A stretch of DNA of 64,000 nt, taken from the NCBI GenBank assembly GCA_965249615.1, contig CBDFMI010000003.1:1-64000 (forward strand), written 5' to 3'. A model generated the notes under the pieces. It was not told where the DNA came from and ran no database searches. It saw only the letters and a program-made list of their open reading frames with translations. This document shows, piece by piece, positions 14,952 through 62,027 of this stretch; the first letter of the stretch is position 1; each line of letters opens with the position of its first letter. This DNA is from G963555815 sp965249615 [NCBI: bacterium] (GTDB lineage Bacteria; UBA8248; JACPRG01). The translations under genes and the position numbers were made by a program.

Positions 14952-15656
14952 ATGAAGGAGATAAGGCGCCGGGGTTTTCTGAAGGTCTCGAGCGTGCTTT
15001 TGCTGGCAGGGTGCGCCAAGGTGACCCGGGCAACGAACGATAGCCAGTCGGCGCGGCAGTTCTTCTCCTGGTTCGCGAAGCTGAACGACCGGCTGGGCCA
15101 ATTGGTGTTCGGCAAGAATCGTCTCGCCCCGGAGTTCACCGAGGCCGACATCACCCGTCCCGACTTCAAGAACAACTATCATGGCATCACGCCCAGAATG
15201 CCCCCGGACAGTTGGTTTATGCGCCTGAGCGGTAAAGTGGACAATCCAAGACCCTTCCGGCTGGAAGATTTTAAACAGATGCCCTCCCGGACCCAGATCA
15301 CAGAGCTCATCTGCGTGGAAGGATGGTCCGCCATCGCCAAGTGGAAGGGGGTCCCCCTCAGCCATTTTCTTGACCTAGCCGGCGTTCGTCCAGAGGCCAA
15401 ATACGTCGCTTTCATCGCGGCCGACGACTACTGGGATTCCCTGGATCTCCAGTCGGCCCGCCATCCCCAGACCCTCCTCGTCTATGAGCTGAATGATCGG
15501 CCGCTGAGCCCCGAGCACGGAGGGCCCCTTCGCCTCATCTGCCCAACCCACATCGGCTATAAGAATGTTAAGGGGCTCATCGGGCTCGCCTTCCTAGAAG
15601 AGCACCCGAGTAGTTATTGGGCTGCCCAGGGCTATCCCTGGCACTACGGCCTCTAG
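14952..15656 (+). CDS. Tat-exported molybdopterin-dependent oxidoreductase, sulfite-oxidase fold
   Basis: A 234-residue protein with a twin-arginine start (RRRGFLK) followed by a lipobox-like LLLAGC, so probably a Tat-exported lipoprotein. The body matches the sulfite oxidase/YedY molybdopterin-binding domain; the Mo-ligating cysteine is about residue 121 in ELICVEGWS, followed by WKGVPLSHFL and the GGPLRLICP segment. Relatives include MsrP (periplasmic methionine sulfoxide reductase) and sulfite dehydrogenases; the substrate is unknown. No membrane heme partner is adjacent. Cofactor genes moaC, moaD and moaE are elsewhere in the window. Confidence 0.85.
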   Translation: MKEIRRRGFLKVSSVLLLAGCAKVTRATNDSQSARQFFSWFAKLNDRLGQLVFGKNRLAPEFTEADITRPDFKNNYHGITPRMPPDSWFMRLSGKVDNPRPFRLEDFKQMPSRTQITELICVEGWSAIAKWKGVPLSHFLDLAGVRPEAKYVAFIAADDYWDSLDLQSARHPQTLLVYELNDRPLSPEHGGPLRLICPTHIGYKNVKGLIGLAFLEEHPSSYWAAQGYPWHYGL

Positions 15657-24496: not shown

Positions 24497-25954
24497 ATGA
24501 GCCTTCAAAGTCGAGACCTCATCCGGATAGACGATCTCACCAACGCTGAGATCGAGACCGTCCTCGCGGTCGCCACGGAGATGGAGGAGGGGATCCGGGA
24601 CCAGGCCCACCGGTGTCCCGGCGCCATCCTGGCCACACTCTTCTTCGAGCCCAGCACGCGGACGCGTCTGTCCTTCGAGGCGGCCATCTGCCGCCTGGGG
24701 GGGAAGATCATCAGTGTGGCGGAGATGAGGACCACCTCTCTTGCCAAGGGGGAAAGCCTGGCCGATACGGCGCGCGTCGTGGGCCACTACGCCGACGTCG
24801 TCGTCGTTCGCCATCCATGGGAAGGCTCCGCCCGGCTGATGGCGGATTTCTCCGACGCCCCCGTGATTAACGGGGGAGACGGCGGTCACGAGCATCCCAC
24901 CCAGACTCTTTGCGACCTCTACACCTTGAGGCGGGAGAAGGGTCGGCTGACCGGCCTGAACGTCGCCCTTTGTGGTGACCTTCTCCATGGCCGGACCATC
25001 CATTCCCTCGCCTACGCCCTGGCCCGCTTTGGGGCCAACATCCTCTGCCTGCCGGGGAAGGGATTGGGGCTCCCAGACGATGTGAAACAAAAACTCCAGG
25101 TGGACTATAGGTGTCGCCCCGAGATCCCCCGATTTGGTCAGGCCCGTCAGGGCGGAGATGTCCGCTCGGTCCTCTCCGGTTCCGACGTGGTGGTCCTGAC
25201 CCCTAGCCGCCCTCACCAGCTTTCTCTCTTTACAAAGGTGGAAGAGAGCATCCCTGAGATCGCATCCCGCATAGATGCCCTCTACGTGACTCGCGCACAG
25301 AAGGAGCGTTTCGAGACCTCTCCTGACGCGAAAGGAACCGAGGAGGAGGCCAGGCAGGACTATCCCATCGTGGACAAGGCCTTCCTGCAAGAGAAACACT
25401 TCAAGGACACCCTGGTTCTTCACCCCCTTCCGCGGGTGGACGAGCTCTCTAGTGAGATCGACTCCGACCCGAGGAGCCGCTACTTTGAACAGGCCGCCCG
25501 GGGAGTCCCCGTTCGAATGGCCCTGCTCTCCCTCCTCCTGGGAGCGCATCCCGGGCCGAAGGCGATAGCGGCTGAAAGCCACGCGGTTTCTCCGGGCGCG
25601 GGAGACAAGTCCCTGATCTACCGCAGCCCCATCGGCGTTCGATGCGAGAACGACCAGTGTGTCTCCGTCCGCGAGAGCTCGCACGTCGTCCCTGAGTTCT
25701 GGGTCCTGGAGGGGGCCCGACCCTCGCGAAAGGGGAAACCCACGGGAGACGCTTCCCCTCGGCTGCAGTGCGTCTATTGTGATACGGACATCCAGCCGGC
25801 CTATGTGGGCCACCTGAAGAGCCGCCGCTACCGACCAGTGGATGGGTCCCTCTCTTTGGAGAGCGGGAAGTGGGTCTTCTTCTCTTCTCGAGAAGAGGCC
25901 GAGGCTCAGGGGTTCAAGCCAGCCGGGCGGGCCGGCAAAATCGAATCGGACTGA
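24497..25954 (+). CDS. pyrB: Aspartate carbamoyltransferase fused to a PyrI-type zinc ribbon
   Basis: Residues 1 to about 345 are a complete ATCase catalytic chain: FFEPSTRTRLSFE, HPTQTLCDLY, VLHPLPRVDEL. It forms carbamoyl aspartate in pyrimidine synthesis. The C-terminal 140 residues are unusual: C383-x4-C388 and C425-x2-C428 match the cysteine spacing of the zinc domain of the regulatory chain PyrI, but PyrI's allosteric nucleotide-binding domain is missing. The last 45 residues (SRRYRPVDG ... VFFSSREEAEAQGFKP) resemble an Ada-type module that lost its cysteines. ATG 24497 chosen over GTG 24473 by homology. Confidence 0.88.
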   Translation: MSLQSRDLIRIDDLTNAEIETVLAVATEMEEGIRDQAHRCPGAILATLFFEPSTRTRLSFEAAICRLGGKIISVAEMRTTSLAKGESLADTARVVGHYADVVVVRHPWEGSARLMADFSDAPVINGGDGGHEHPTQTLCDLYTLRREKGRLTGLNVALCGDLLHGRTIHSLAYALARFGANILCLPGKGLGLPDDVKQKLQVDYRCRPEIPRFGQARQGGDVRSVLSGSDVVVLTPSRPHQLSLFTKVEESIPEIASRIDALYVTRAQKERFETSPDAKGTEEEARQDYPIVDKAFLQEKHFKDTLVLHPLPRVDELSSEIDSDPRSRYFEQAARGVPVRMALLSLLLGAHPGPKAIAAESHAVSPGAGDKSLIYRSPIGVRCENDQCVSVRESSHVVPEFWVLEGARPSRKGKPTGDASPRLQCVYCDTDIQPAYVGHLKSRRYRPVDGSLSLESGKWVFFSSREEAEAQGFKPAGRAGKIESD

Positions 25955-25958
25955 CGAG

Positions 25959-26870
25959 ATGCAACAGGGACCTTTTCGAAGGTTCCTCTGGCCTCGAATC
26001 CAAACGCGACCCCCCCTCTTTTTGTCTCTTCGCCTCGTGTTCGCCCTGCTGGCCCTCCCGCTGGTGGGCGTGGGGCACGTCCCCCTTCTTCGTGTCCACT
26101 TCCTGGACGCGGGGCGAGGCGACTGCATCCTCCTTGAGCCCGCTCAGGGCCGGCCTGTGCTCCTCGATGGCTGCCATCCGGAGCGCTGGCAAGAAGTCCG
26201 GGCTTATCTGATGAAGGTCGGGGTGAAGAGGTTGTCCCTCGCCATCGCCACCCACCCCCATCGCGATCATCTTGGGGGGATAGCGAAGACCCTTCTCTTA
26301 TTTCCAGCCGATGAGGTGTGGGAAAATGGGGCGGACGGAGACACTGAAGAGGTGCGCAGAGAGGTGAGGCGGGTGAGGAGTCGCGCGAAGGTCGTCCGAA
26401 GTGGGGAGATCTGGGACCATCCGGCGGGACTCAGGCTTGAGGTCCTCTCCCCGGCAGATCCCCTTTGGGATGACCTCAATGAAGACTCCTTGGTCATCCG
26501 AGCGACTTATGGCGCCGTCCGTTTCCTTTTCACAGGCGACATCGGGAGGGGGAGAAAACAGGCGCTCCTCAAGGGTCTGGCTAGAGATCTGGAGAGCGAC
26601 GTCCTGAAGGTGAGTCACCATGGATTCGGCGGGGATTTTGATGGGGAGTTCCTTCAGGCGGTCATGCCCAAAGTGGCCATCATCACCAACGGGCCGGGGG
26701 ATCACGTGGGGCCTCCTTCCCCAGAGATCCTCGACGCTCTTGGGGAAGAAGGGGCGGCCGTCTGTTGGACGGGCCGGGACGGCACGGTCATTGTCCAGTC
26801 AGACGGAAACACCTTTGAGATTATCGCAGAGCGAAAGAAAGACACTTCTCTGGGTGAGGTTGGGCGGTGA
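25959..26870 (+). CDS. ComEC-type metallo-beta-lactamase-fold hydrolase, membrane-anchored or secreted
   Basis: A 303-residue protein. A hydrophobic N-terminal segment (about residues 22-42) is followed by a metallo-beta-lactamase domain like the C-terminal domain of ComEC: VHFLDAGRGDCILLEP, the metal motif THPHRDHLGG, LFTGDIG and KVSHHG. The ComEC membrane channel is absent. Such stand-alone forms may hydrolyse nucleic acids outside the membrane; the substrate is unknown. The ATG at 25959 lies five bases after the pyrB stop. Confidence 0.8.
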   Translation: MQQGPFRRFLWPRIQTRPPLFLSLRLVFALLALPLVGVGHVPLLRVHFLDAGRGDCILLEPAQGRPVLLDGCHPERWQEVRAYLMKVGVKRLSLAIATHPHRDHLGGIAKTLLLFPADEVWENGADGDTEEVRREVRRVRSRAKVVRSGEIWDHPAGLRLEVLSPADPLWDDLNEDSLVIRATYGAVRFLFTGDIGRGRKQALLKGLARDLESDVLKVSHHGFGGDFDGEFLQAVMPKVAIITNGPGDHVGPPSPEILDALGEEGAAVCWTGRDGTVIVQSDGNTFEIIAERKKDTSLGEVGR

Positions 26871-27325
26871 ACCCTTGGTTTTTGGCGAAAAAGAGCTCTC
26901 TGGTTCTTGTTCTTTTCCTCGCCTTGGGGTCTCTTGGGGCAGAAGGTGTTTTCTCTCTTTCTCCTCCCGTGGCCTGGGGTCAGAGGGCGAGACTTCAAGC
27001 CGAGGAGGCCTTCAATCGGAAACTCTCCGGGGTCTTCCTCACGGCCGAGGGGCGGGTCCTGCGGATCCTCTCTGAGGACAGGGAAGGCGCTCCCCATCAG
27101 CGCTTCATCCTTCGTCTTTCCTCGGGGCACACGCTCCTCGTCCTGCACAACATCGCCGTCTCCACTGCCGTCCCGCTGACCGAGGGAGGCTGGCTCAGGG
27201 TCCGTGGAGAATATCGCTGGAATGAAAAAGGCGGGCTCCTCCACTTCACCCACCAGCCGAGGGGCCAGCCCCGGGGAGAGATCGGCGGATGGATCGTCAC
27301 CGAGGATGGTAGACTCTACCGGTGA
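26867..27325 (+). CDS. DUF3465 exported protein
   Basis: A 152-residue protein with a signal peptide (hydrophobic residues 11-25). The body carries the DUF3465 pattern: QRFILRLSSGHTLLVLHNIAV, then RVRGEYRWNEKGGLLHFTH and GGWI near the end, probably a small OB-like fold. Function is not known; several relatives sit near nucleases, and here it overlaps the ComEC-like gene by four bases (GTGA), which suggests the two act together. Confidence 0.75.
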   Translation: MNPWFLAKKSSLVLVLFLALGSLGAEGVFSLSPPVAWGQRARLQAEEAFNRKLSGVFLTAEGRVLRILSEDREGAPHQRFILRLSSGHTLLVLHNIAVSTAVPLTEGGWLRVRGEYRWNEKGGLLHFTHQPRGQPRGEIGGWIVTEDGRLYR

Positions 27326-27352
27326 TCTTCGTCTAGACTAAGAGTCCTGATG

Positions 27353-27364
27353 GAACCCGGGTTC
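27353..27364. repeat. Perfect 12-base palindrome upstream of the TauE/SafE gene
   Basis: GAACCCGGGTTC lies 23 bases before the Shine-Dalgarno sequence of the permease gene. It could be an operator or the end hairpin of the upstream gene; no T-run follows. Confidence 0.3.
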
Positions 27365-27386
27365 TGATCTAAACAATCCAAACAGA

Positions 27387-27397
27387 AAGGGGGTGAG
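27387..27397 (+). promoter_or_regulatory. Strong ribosome binding site that fixes the TauE/SafE start
   Basis: AAGGGGGTGAG differs from the ideal anti-16S complement by one base and lies 5 bases (9 from its G-core) before GTG 27403. No comparable site precedes GTG 27478, the first start after the in-frame TGAs. This is the main reason to include the TGA-containing segment in the gene. Confidence 0.7.
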
Positions 27398-27402
27398 ACT
27401 CA

Positions 27403-28260
27403 GTGGAATACTGGTTTGAGTTCTGGTACATGTTTCCCATTGCTATCGGCTTCTGACTACTGGCCTGAATCTCCAGTGTGGAGGGAGCCGTGTTGTTCAC
27501 CCCATTTTTCATATTAGTCCTTCCCCTGATTAGCGGGAAGGTGATCCATCCGGTGGAAGCTATCTTCCTTAGCCTCATCATCGAGGTTTTCGGGTTCGGA
27601 AGCGCCACTTTGGGATACTTGCGACAGAAGGTCATTGACTTTCCCATCATGGGCTTCGTCCTGGCGGTGAGCGTCCCCGTTTCGGTCCTCATCTCTCTCT
27701 TTGCCCATCGGGTCCCTGAGGGGATCCTTCTCTTTGTCCTGGGTTTGACCCTGCTCACGCTGGCCGCCTTGATGTTCTCTGCGCACCTAAAGACTGAGAT
27801 ACAGGTCGATCCCAGCTCCTCTCCCTACGTCAGACGACTTTCGGATTCTCAGGGCCGTTCCTACGTTTATGCCTTCCGACGGACCCCGCTCGGGGTCTTC
27901 ATCTCGGCCCTTGGGGGCCTCTTCGTGGGTCTTGTGGGGATTGGGGTGGGGGAGTTCAAGACCACCTATTTTGTGATCGGGCAAAAGATGCCGCCTCGGG
28001 TGGCTGTGGCGACGGCCGTCCCGATCGTGATGGGGACGGTGACGGCGGCCGTTGTAACGAGGCTTTATGTCACCGGAACGGGGATTGCCGACTTTCAGGT
28101 CCCGTGGAACATCGCCGCTATGTGTGTCCCGGCGGTCCTCTTGGGAGGCCAGATCGCCCCCCTCATCAACCGCCACCTCAACCCTGGGACCATCCGGATC
28201 GTCCTCTTTCTCCTCTTCACCTTAGTGGGGGCCACCCTCATCCTGAGGGGCTTTCTCTAA
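27403..28260 (+). CDS. TauE/SafE-family permease with two in-frame TGA codons (candidate selenoprotein)
   Basis: From GTG 27403 the frame reads MEYWFEFWYMFPIAIGF, TGA, LLA, TGA, then ISSVEGAVLFTPFF and a full TauE/SafE permease to 28260 (285 codons, about eight membrane helices). TGAs at 27454 and 27466 are codons 18 and 22 in helix 1. The second family repeat, LVGIGVGEFKTTYF, mirrors SSVEGAVLFTPFF. The N-terminal aromatic residues resemble TauE homologues as I remember them, so translation should start before the TGAs. TauE/SafE proteins move sulfite, sulfoacetate and similar anions. A Sec-x3-Sec pair in the helix is the favoured reading; substrate unknown. Confidence 0.75.
27462..27489 (+). 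promoter_or_regulatory. Candidate bacterial SECIS element in the TauE/SafE gene
   Basis: GGC 27462-27464 pairs with GCC 27487-27489, then after an internal loop containing the second TGA, TCTCCA 27470-27475 pairs with TGGAGG 27479-27484 around the apical loop GTG (27476-27478). The loop is 20-22 bases after the first TGA and has the G and U typical of bacterial SECIS loops. For the second TGA a weak 4-bp stem with loop CGUGUU lies 21-26 bases downstream. Pairing was done by hand. Confidence 0.5.
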
Positions 28261-28544
28261 GGTTTTTCCCGGGGCGGTTCTTGGCACCTCTGGTGGTAGG
28301 CCGAGAGCACGGCCTCCCGGATGGCGGTTTTAAGGTCTCGATCCATCGGCACGACCAGGTCCTGTTGCCCACCTCGCGTCTTTTGAGAAGGGTAGCCGAG
28401 AAACCACCCCCCGTTCTCCCTCTCAATCACCCGGATTCCTCTCAGGAGGAGGACGTCCTCCAGCTCCACCTCTGCGTAGGCCCGGACGTGTCCCCCCGAG
28501 ATGGGCATCTCAAAAGGTGTTAGGCGGACGGCGGTGATCTTCAA
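28257..28544 (-). CDS. spoVG: SpoVG-family DNA-binding regulator
   Basis: A 95-residue SpoVG protein: MKITAVRLTPF at the N-terminus, LLLRGIRVIERENGGWFLGYPSQK in the middle and AVLSAYHQ at the end. SpoVG-type proteins bind nucleic acids and modulate gene expression in Firmicutes and spirochaetes; in this non-sporulating-looking genome the role is unknown. It overlaps the convergent permease gene by four bases. Confidence 0.88.
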   Translation of the reverse strand: MKITAVRLTPFEMPISGGHVRAYAEVELEDVLLLRGIRVIERENGGWFLGYPSQKTRGGQQDLVVPMDRDLKTAIREAVLSAYHQRCQEPPREKP

Positions 28545-61077: not shown

Positions 61078-62027
61078 TTATCCAAAGAGGGTGGTCTTCG
61101 GCAGGAAATTTTTGAGGTTCGGGAAGGCGTTGACAAAAATCTCCTCCAGGCCCTCTTCTAAAGGCATGCCGAGTTGGTGTTTCAGCATGAGGGCGTTTGC
61201 GACCGCCTGAGCCCTCGGGTGGTTGTTGAAAAATATCAGAATTTTTTGTGGCCCGTCGGGGCGTGCCAGAATGTTTTTTAGATCCTCTGCGAAAGACAAA
61301 AGTTCTTCTTCTGAGTAGCAATAATCATATCGCTCTTCCGGCGTCTCGTGCTCCCACCACTTTTCGCGGTTCCGCCCGTGGAAGCGAAGGTACAGAAGAT
61401 CGCCGACGGGTTTTAGGGTCTGTCGAATGGAGCTGCTGAATTTGGGCTCGTCGATATAGACCCAGGTTGCCCCTTTTGAGATTAGAACCTCTTCGAGGTT
61501 CGCCGCCCCCCCCAGCTCCTGTGGCGAAGCTCTAGCGCCACAGGATACTCCCTAAAACAGTCCAGGGTGCGCCGGAGTCCCTCCTGGGCCTCGGTCGTGG
61601 AGATGAATGAGGGGGGGAATTGCAGAAGCAGGGCGCCGAGCTTTCCCGCCTCCATCAGCGGCTCGATCCCCCGCTTAAAAAGCTCGAAATCTCCTCGCCT
61701 GATCTCCGCCTCCCTCCCCGTTGCCTCCTGGAACATCTTGGGGTGGGTGAATTTCTGCCAGGCCTTGACGGCGAAGACAAAATCCCGGGGTGTTCGCTCG
61801 GCCCAGCCTTTTGCCGTTTGAGGTGACGCCGGGCGGTAGAAGGTCGAATTGACCTCGACGGCCTTGAAGTGGCGTGCGTAGTACTCGAGCTCGTCTCGGA
61901 CCCCCTTGGGATAAAAAATGCCTCTCCATTTGCCGGGGCCTTTGGGATAAGACCAGCCAGAAGTGCCGATGAGGGTCGTCGCTGAGGCCATTTCGCTCAT
62001 CCAGGAGGAATTTTCTGTGTCCCTCAT
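61078..62027 (-). pseudogene. DUF72 (YecE-like) protein, frameshifted in a homopolymer
   Basis: The N-terminal part (IGTSGWSYPKGPGKWRGIFYP, AVEVNSTFYR, LLQFPPSF, VALELRHRSW) runs from 62027 to about 61513. There a run of eight G (C on the plus strand, 61506-61513) shifts the frame. The rest continues in the other frame (NLEEVLISKGATWVYIDEP, LYLRFHGRN, IFFNNHPRAQAVANALML) to the stop at 61078. Nine G would give one intact protein of about 315 residues. DUF72 is a TIM-barrel family of unknown function. Confidence 0.8.

What the first reader, a model, noticed from the sequence alone, without database searches (positions are those of the whole stretch)
27403..28260. TauE/SafE permease with two TGA codons in the first membrane helix: candidate double-selenocysteine transporter
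From GTG 27403, behind an almost ideal ribosome site (27387-27397), the frame has TauE/SafE-like sequence interrupted only by TGA at codons 18 and 22, then continues as a full permease. Two independent stops, no frameshift and continuing homology argue against decay. TauE/SafE proteins carry sulfur oxyanions, so a Sec-x3-Sec pair in the transport helix could take part directly in handling sulfur or selenium anions. I know of no described selenocysteine member of this family, but I could not search.
Basis: partly seen in the sequence, partly recalled or inferred. Interest (0 to 1): 0.9.

Follow-up and report, generated by a model that had tools for sequence, protein, structure and literature searches.

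The report
Transporter with a conserved selenocysteine pair
A bacterial membrane transporter of the sulfite-exporter family appears to carry two selenium-containing amino acids in its first membrane helix, and distant relatives in another bacterial group carry the same two at exactly the same places, so this looks like a real and so far unlisted kind of selenium protein rather than a broken gene.

Summary
The frame from GTG 27403 has in-frame TGA at codons 18 and 22 only and reads as TauE/SafE (PF01925, E 1.1e-26). Two genomes in the phylum of a contig titled Acidobacteria encode a TauE 38-40% identical to it, with TGA at exactly the same two codons and a third TGA in a loop after HCPC. A third genome keeps all three TGAs but has two frameshifts. 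Among 35 non-TGA rows aligned, no residue at either column is Cys: position 18 is Ala/Ser/Gly, position 22 mostly Met/Ser/Thr. No genome is held for the window; its nearest relatives are Rokubacteria. tRNA-Sec is over cut-off in 79 of 95 genomes of their phylum, and the three nearest have SelB. TGA ends 30 of 47 listed window genes. I judge at 0.87 that both UGAs encode selenocysteine, giving Sec-x3-Sec in TM1. Substrate and mechanism are inferred. A 2026 review covering 119 families has no TauE in its main text. Weak points: SECIS only suggestive, no Cys homologue found, two independent lineages, own genome unsearched.

The parts
27389..27397 (+). Shine-Dalgarno-like GGGGGTGAG, 5 bases before the GTG start
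   Evidence: read directly from the sequence
27403..28260 (+). TauE/SafE-family permease, 285 residues, two in-frame TGA codons read as selenocysteine
   Evidence: translation; Pfam PF01925 E 1.1e-26; 38-40% identity to two TGA-bearing homologues (35-38% by BLAST)
27454..27456 (+). TGA codon 18, predicted Sec18 in TM1
   Evidence: TGA at the same aligned codon in L108 and L109 and in the frameshifted copy of G774
27466..27468 (+). TGA codon 22, predicted Sec22 in TM1, about one helical turn after Sec18
   Evidence: as above
27455..27497 (+). candidate bacterial SECIS: lower stem enclosing UGA22 and a 6-bp upper stem with a 3-nt apical loop starting 19 nt after UGA18
   Evidence: minimum-energy fold with a similar layout in L108; weak: z-scores -0.42 and -1.23, no covariation
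27480..27492 (+). SD-like GGAGGG (27480-27485) and GTG codon 30 (27490-27492): possible internal start, rival reading
   Evidence: read directly; GGAGGG invariant in 4 of 4 sequences, GTG in the window, L108 and L109 but not in L116; mechanical ORFs of L108 and L109 start there

Best explanation
The gene encodes a selenoprotein of the TauE/SafE permease family in a Rokubacteria-related bacterium. Both UGAs are decoded as selenocysteine, giving a Sec-x3-Sec pair about one helical turn apart in the first transmembrane helix, where ordinary relatives have Ala/Ser and mostly Met/Ser/Thr. Shown here: the frame, the family, both UGAs at the same columns in a distant lineage, and Sec-decoding genes in the nearest relatives. 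Inferred: SelB decodes both UGAs, perhaps with one shared SECIS. Mechanism, my inference at about 0.4: the two selenols line the transport path and bind or relay a chalcogen species (thiosulfate, sulfite, polysulfide or a selenium counterpart), as the three cysteines of YeeE are proposed to relay thiosulfate; soft-metal handling is the next likeliest use. The confidence given is for Sec at both UGAs, not for the substrate.
For: TGA at exactly the same two columns in L108 and L109, 38-40% identical to the window product; all three TGAs of that lineage also kept in G774. Their third in-frame TGA follows CPC in a loop, a Sec-like setting. L108 and L109 differ mostly at third positions under read-through (32 of 49 differences, dN/dS 0.24). 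The TGA-bearing trio forms one clade in a tree of 31 rows (98/93). tRNA-Sec over the gathering score in 79 of 95 genomes of the nearest phylum and in 6 of 7 chosen genomes (at that stricter limit 3 of 14 controls ring). SelB over cut-off in 6 of 6 genomes (over cut-off in 2 of 14 controls). selA next to selB, with tRNA-Sec, on one contig of G001. The non-TGA TauE matches of the genome search were reported without internal stops. Cysteine relay in YeeE: PMC11073785 (passages).
Against: No Cys form at either column (0 of 31 rows with a residue at position 18, 0 of 33 at position 22), whereas nearly all selenoproteins are said to have Cys homologues (PMC13188914, passage). SECIS evidence is weak. 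The window's own genome could not be searched. In the 95 phylum relatives only distant TauE were found (2 of 95 at E 1e-10, 28% identity). G761 showed no tRNA-Sec at E 1e-9. L108 and L109 are close kin, so only two lineages are independent. The G774 copy is frameshifted twice. The clade joins long branches, with a warning that such joins may be false. I recognised nothing in the neighbourhood that points to sulfur or selenium (by eye).
Confidence: 0.87

Rival explanations
1. Translation starts downstream, at GTG codon 30 behind the SD-like GGAGGG (or at GTG codon 26), and the upstream part is a leader or a remnant; the TGAs are ordinary stops.
For: GGAGGG is invariant in 4 of 4 sequences and GTG codon 30 is kept in the window, L108 and L109; mechanical ORF calling starts the window protein at codon 26 and the homologues at the codon-30 GTG.
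Against: The upstream codons encode family sequence, agreeing between window and L108 at 15 of 26 columns (13 of 24 without the TGAs). Non-TGA relatives have the same N-terminal helix in an open frame. A leader would not need two TGAs at fixed columns. An SD-like site lies before 27403. The downstream start removes TM1.
Confidence: 0.06
2. The gene is a decaying pseudogene, or the TGAs are sequencing or assembly errors.
For: No close TauE in the 95 phylum relatives searched, and the G774 copy has two frameshifts.
Against: The same two TGA columns occur in independent assemblies at 38-40% identity. The window frame has no frameshift and no TAA or TAG before its end. dN/dS is 0.24 between L108 and L109.
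Confidence: 0.02
3. The UGAs are read through as another residue (near-cognate Trp, Cys or Arg) instead of Sec.
For: Ordinary relatives do not need Cys at these columns.
Against: TGA terminates 30 of 47 listed window genes; relatives carry tRNA-Sec and SelB; a third TGA in the homologues follows CPC.
Confidence: 0.05
4. Sec is inserted, but the pair serves soft-metal or metalloid handling (Hg, As, Cu) and not sulfur or selenium species. This is a rival to the mechanism only and overlaps with the best explanation.
For: PMC13188914 says that most of the Sec-containing transporter parts it names are implicated in metal or metalloid resistance (passages). Non-Sec relatives often have Met at position 22 (14 of 33 rows with a residue), a soft ligand.
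Against: Family assignment is to the sulfite exporter TauE/SafE family. I recognised no metal-resistance gene nearby (by eye from the ORF lists; no search was made for one).
Confidence: 0.3

Closest known systems
TauE/SafE permease family (Pfam PF01925)
   Same: Full-length family match and shared N-terminal helix
   Different: Two in-frame UGAs in TM1; non-TGA rows have Ala/Ser/Gly and mostly Met/Ser/Thr there. No NCBIfam model matches the window protein or L108 at E 0.001
Sec-containing YeeE/YedE thiosulfate transporter (PF04143, motif GUxSG), as listed in PMC13188914 (passages)
   Same: A predicted selenoprotein that is itself a permease for sulfur species; the Cys-type YeeE is proposed to relay thiosulfate through three cysteines (PMC11073785, passages)
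   Different: Different Pfam family; listed with one Sec in GUxSG against two in Sec-x3-Sec here
Other predicted Sec-bearing transport proteins (SaoP permease, SO_0444 Cu/Zn efflux transporter, mercuric transport protein), as named in PMC13188914 (passages)
   Same: Sec in transport proteins, inferred role with soft metals
   Different: Other families and motifs; TauE, SafE and PF01925 do not occur in the main text of that review

Membership tests
TauE/SafE (PF01925) | Full-length match above the curated Pfam cut-off | tested here: met
   94.4 bits against 32.6, residues 20-278; homologues L108 and L109 104.4 and 102.9 bits
TauE/SafE (PF01925) | Sulfite or organosulfonate transport activity | not testable with these tools
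   needs a transport assay
Bacterial selenoprotein | In-frame UGA conserved at the same position in distant homologues | tested here: met
   both UGAs in L108 and L109 at 38-40% identity, kept in the frameshifted G774 copy; L108 and L109 count as one lineage
Bacterial selenoprotein | Sec-decoding genes in the same organism | tested here: inconclusive
   own genome not held, none in the window (for tRNA-Sec); nearest genomes G001-G003 have tRNA-Sec and SelB, G001 also selA; selD was not searched
Bacterial selenoprotein | Bacterial SECIS hairpin downstream of the UGA | tested here: inconclusive
   a fold with an apical loop 19 nt after UGA18, similar layout in L108, but z -0.42 and -1.23, no covariation; a loose hairpin rule passes 87% of random window stretches
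Bacterial selenoprotein | Cys-containing homologues at the Sec position (usual, not obligatory) | tested here: not met
   no Cys in 31 and 33 non-TGA rows with a residue at the two columns; 'nearly all' have one per PMC13188914
Bacterial selenoprotein | Selenium in the protein | not testable with these tools
   needs 75Se labelling or mass spectrometry
Sec-type YeeE/YedE (PF04143) | Match to PF04143 | tested here: not met
   PF01925 was the only Pfam family at E 0.001

The most novel reading that the evidence does not exclude
A selenium-handling transporter built from selenium: the Sec pair in TM1 selectively binds selenide, selenite or a selenosulfur species. Because full-length protein is made only when Sec-tRNA is available, the gene acts as a self-gated exporter, or a sensor-valve, for excess selenium. 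It would be a dedicated prokaryotic selenium transporter; [quoted passage not shown]
Probability: 0.12. Interest if true: 0.9.

Novelty: new variant of a known kind. Interest (0 to 1): 0.72.

Why it matters
Per the 2026 review (PMC13188914, passages) the vast majority of the 119 selenoprotein families and subfamilies have a single Sec. A permease with two conserved Sec about one helical turn apart inside a membrane helix would extend selenium chemistry into the transport path itself. It also shows what Cys/Sec-pair searches can miss: here the ordinary relatives found have Ala/Ser and mostly Met/Ser/Thr, not Cys. It gives a testable candidate for the open question of how prokaryotes move selenium or reactive sulfur across membranes.

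Tried and rejected
Close relatives of the single protein by peptide pattern in genome contigs: 50 stretches matched a pattern, none was a relative. Viral contigs with two alignments: 36 and 32 stretches, none a relative. Plasmids: 14 records with TauE at 24-31% identity, 6 of 14 fetched. Window's nearest phylum: 2 of 95 genomes matched at E 1e-10, both distant (28%) and without stops; 4 of 12 chosen genomes at E 0.001, distant. 45 further genomes of mixed phyla: 1 of 45 at E 1e-8. Phylum of a Syntrophaceae contig: 9 of 395 at E 1e-12, non-TGA; phylum of a Deltaproteobacteria contig: 6 of 247 at E 1e-14, all six already. Phylum of a Latescibacterota contig: 1 of 80, non-TGA. Phylum of a KSB1 contig: 9 of 82, non-TGA. 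Solved structures by profile: only 10 weak virus-capsid matches, E 0.056-0.99, taken as chance. AlphaFold2 on the single sequence is poor (mean pLDDT 52.5); it puts residues 2-24 in one helix, but I do not rely on it and ran no fold search. Extra silent-site conservation around the TGAs: not significant (lowest p of four ranges 0.11). SECIS by energy or covariation: not significant. Gene neighbours: by eye no shared neighbour between the window (MBL, DUF3465, SpoVG, mqnD) and L113/L114 (GGDEF and response-regulator-like genes, a glycerol-kinase-like gene; names given by eye).

Literature. Selenoprotein with TauE as a word start: 7 papers, judged irrelevant from the listing. Selenoprotein with sulfite exporter: 0. 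Two of selenoprotein, PF01925, COG0730, DUF81: 0. Selenocysteine, TauE, SafE (two of three; 1,257 papers because 'safe' is a common word, 10 listed): two listed papers hold selenocysteine and TauE; of PMC7117923 I saw passages, where the words stand apart; of PMC6134039 only the listing. Passages searched for TauE or related terms without a TauE hit: PMC13188914, PMC12013277, PMC9312934; PMC2398784 for transporter, permease, membrane, DUF81, COG0730. Three papers that could mention it are not held (PMC12013261, the Cell Reports paper of Deng 2026, PMC9879109), and supplements could not be read, so prior mention cannot be excluded.

Full report
What was checked. The window frame from GTG 27403 to TAA 28260 has exactly two internal stops, TGA at codons 18 and 22. 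Read with TGA as a residue it is a TauE/SafE permease (PF01925, E 1.1e-26, 94.4 bits). TGA is the ordinary terminator in 30 of the 47 window genes that I listed, so a reassigned code is excluded.

Where it comes from. No genome is held for the window. That Rokubacteria belong to Methylomirabilota is recalled, not from a call. In 95 genomes of that phylum no TauE reached the level of an orthologue: 2 of 95 matched at E 1e-10, at 28% identity. In 20 loci compared (L007-L026, of unequal length; 15 of 20 showed mqnD), none showed TauE, DUF3465, the MBL gene or SpoVG at E 1e-5.

The decisive relatives. In 247 genomes drawn from the phylum of G109 (its contig L039 is titled Acidobacteria bacterium), 4 of 247 matched at E 1e-14, and two of these were reported with '3 TGA' inside: G745 (E 8.9e-45) and G761 (E 4.5e-43). 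Both have TGA at the same two aligned codons as the window (FPVAFLI-TGA-LTA-TGA-ILALEGAVLFTP) and a third TGA at codon 141 after HCPC. They are 40 and 38% identical to the window product in the alignment (35-38% by BLAST). The two are close kin (94.4% DNA identity; dN/dS 0.24; 32 of 49 differences at third positions), so I count them as one lineage. G745 also has a second, non-TGA TauE (L112). In the 38 genomes searched as the class of G745, 3 of 38 matched at E 1e-20. The third, G774, keeps all three TGAs but is broken by two frameshifts, seen by eye, through decay or assembly error.

What ordinary relatives have. I aligned the window, L108, L109 and 35 non-TGA rows (L105 and L107 are the same gene; the distant L090 and L097 were left out). 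At position 18 they have 22 Ala, 7 Ser, 2 Gly and 4 gaps; at position 22, 14 Met, 6 Thr, 6 Ser, 3 Ile, 2 Leu, 1 Asn, 1 Ala and 2 gaps; no Cys. These rows were built as open frames, so their lack of stops is by construction there; the search itself reported no internal stops for the non-TGA matches. The most distant rows (L087-L092) align poorly at the N terminus. Many of the nearer ones share the pattern Y/F-W-x-FP, so the stretch upstream of the TGAs is family sequence. A tree of 31 rows (7 of 38 dropped) puts window, L108 and L109 together (98/93), with a warning that long branches meet and that such joins may be false. One origin of the Sec form with later transfer or loss is the simplest reading, but is not shown.

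Sec-decoding genes. tRNA-Sec reaches its gathering score in 79 of 95 genomes of the window's nearest phylum, each with a best E of 7.1e-11 or lower. In that call's control it was over the cut-off in 5 of 14 well-known genomes, with a limit of E 1e-9, in 3 of 14 (Escherichia coli, Thermus composti, Methanocaldococcus jannaschii). Of 7 chosen genomes 6 have it: G745, G774, G001, G002, G003 and G773, not G761. SelB is over its cut-off in 6 of 6: G745, G761, G774, G001, G002 and G003 (in 2 of 14 controls). In G001, selA (583 bits against 267.9) adjoins selB, with tRNA-Sec on the same contig. selD was not searched. The window itself holds no tRNA-Sec that ARAGORN or Rfam finds.

SECIS. The 50 bases from UGA18 align without gaps in four sequences (two of them identical), with 36 of 50 columns invariant. 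The minimum-energy folds of window and L108 share a layout: an outer GAC/GUU stem, a GGC/GCC lower stem, and an upper hairpin whose loop begins 19 nt (window) or 17 nt (L108) after UGA18, with G first. That fits the published bacterial rule of 16-37 nt with a G in the first two loop positions (PMC13188914, passages). But the upper stems are in different registers, z-scores are -0.42 and -1.23, there is no covariation, silent-site conservation is not significant, and a loose version of the rule passes 87% of random window stretches. So I treat the SECIS as plausible, not shown. How UGA22 is served, since it lies inside that structure, is open. The third TGA of L108 and L109 has a 7-bp stem with an 8-nt loop starting 20 nt downstream, also without a significant z-score (-0.23 and 0.27).

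How it may work. Positions 18 and 22 are about one helical turn apart in a hydrophobic stretch (inference from spacing and hydropathy; the model is poor). Two selenols there could bind or relay a thiophilic substrate. The closest worked example is YeeE, in which three conserved cysteines are proposed to relay thiosulfate (PMC11073785, passages). A Sec form of YeeE/YedE is already listed (PMC13188914, passages). I give the chalcogen relay about 0.4 and soft-metal handling about 0.3. Neither is tested, and no neighbour gene that I recognised helps.

Novelty. PMC13188914 (2026; passages only) covers 119 families or subfamilies; its main text has no TauE, SafE, PF01925, COG0730 or sulfite. Library searches for selenoprotein with TauE, sulfite exporter, PF01925, COG0730 or DUF81 gave nothing that I judged relevant from the listings; a search with selenocysteine listed two papers that hold TauE too, one seen in passages with the words apart (PMC7117923), one seen only in the listing (PMC6134039). 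Three papers that might mention it are not held. I therefore call it a new variant of a known kind: a selenoprotein permease family not listed in what I could read, and not a new principle.

Noticed in passing
L108:1921-1923 and the matching codon 141 of L109: A third in-frame TGA after HCPC in a loop of the homologues, absent from the window protein; CPC-Sec looks like a separate metal or redox site.
   Followed up: partly
L115 and L116 (G774 C369:14327-15183): A third copy keeps all three TGAs but is frameshifted near the start and in the central loop; decay or assembly error.
   Followed up: partly
window 25842-28544: The block MBL (ComEC-like) - DUF3465 - TauE - SpoVG beside mqnD was not seen in 20 relatives' loci of unequal length, 15 of which show mqnD, so it may be lineage-specific.
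   Followed up: partly
window 14952-15656: An ORF that looks by eye like a sulfite-oxidase-type molybdopterin protein (CVEGWS) lies 12 kb upstream; no search was made.
   Followed up: no
window 61482-62027 (-): An ORF that looks by eye like a DUF72-type protein but seems short at its C terminus, perhaps frameshifted; no search was made.
   Followed up: no
window 27480-27492: GGAGGG followed by GTG codon 30 is conserved in L108 and L109; it could allow reinitiation of a protein without TM1 when selenium is short.
   Followed up: no
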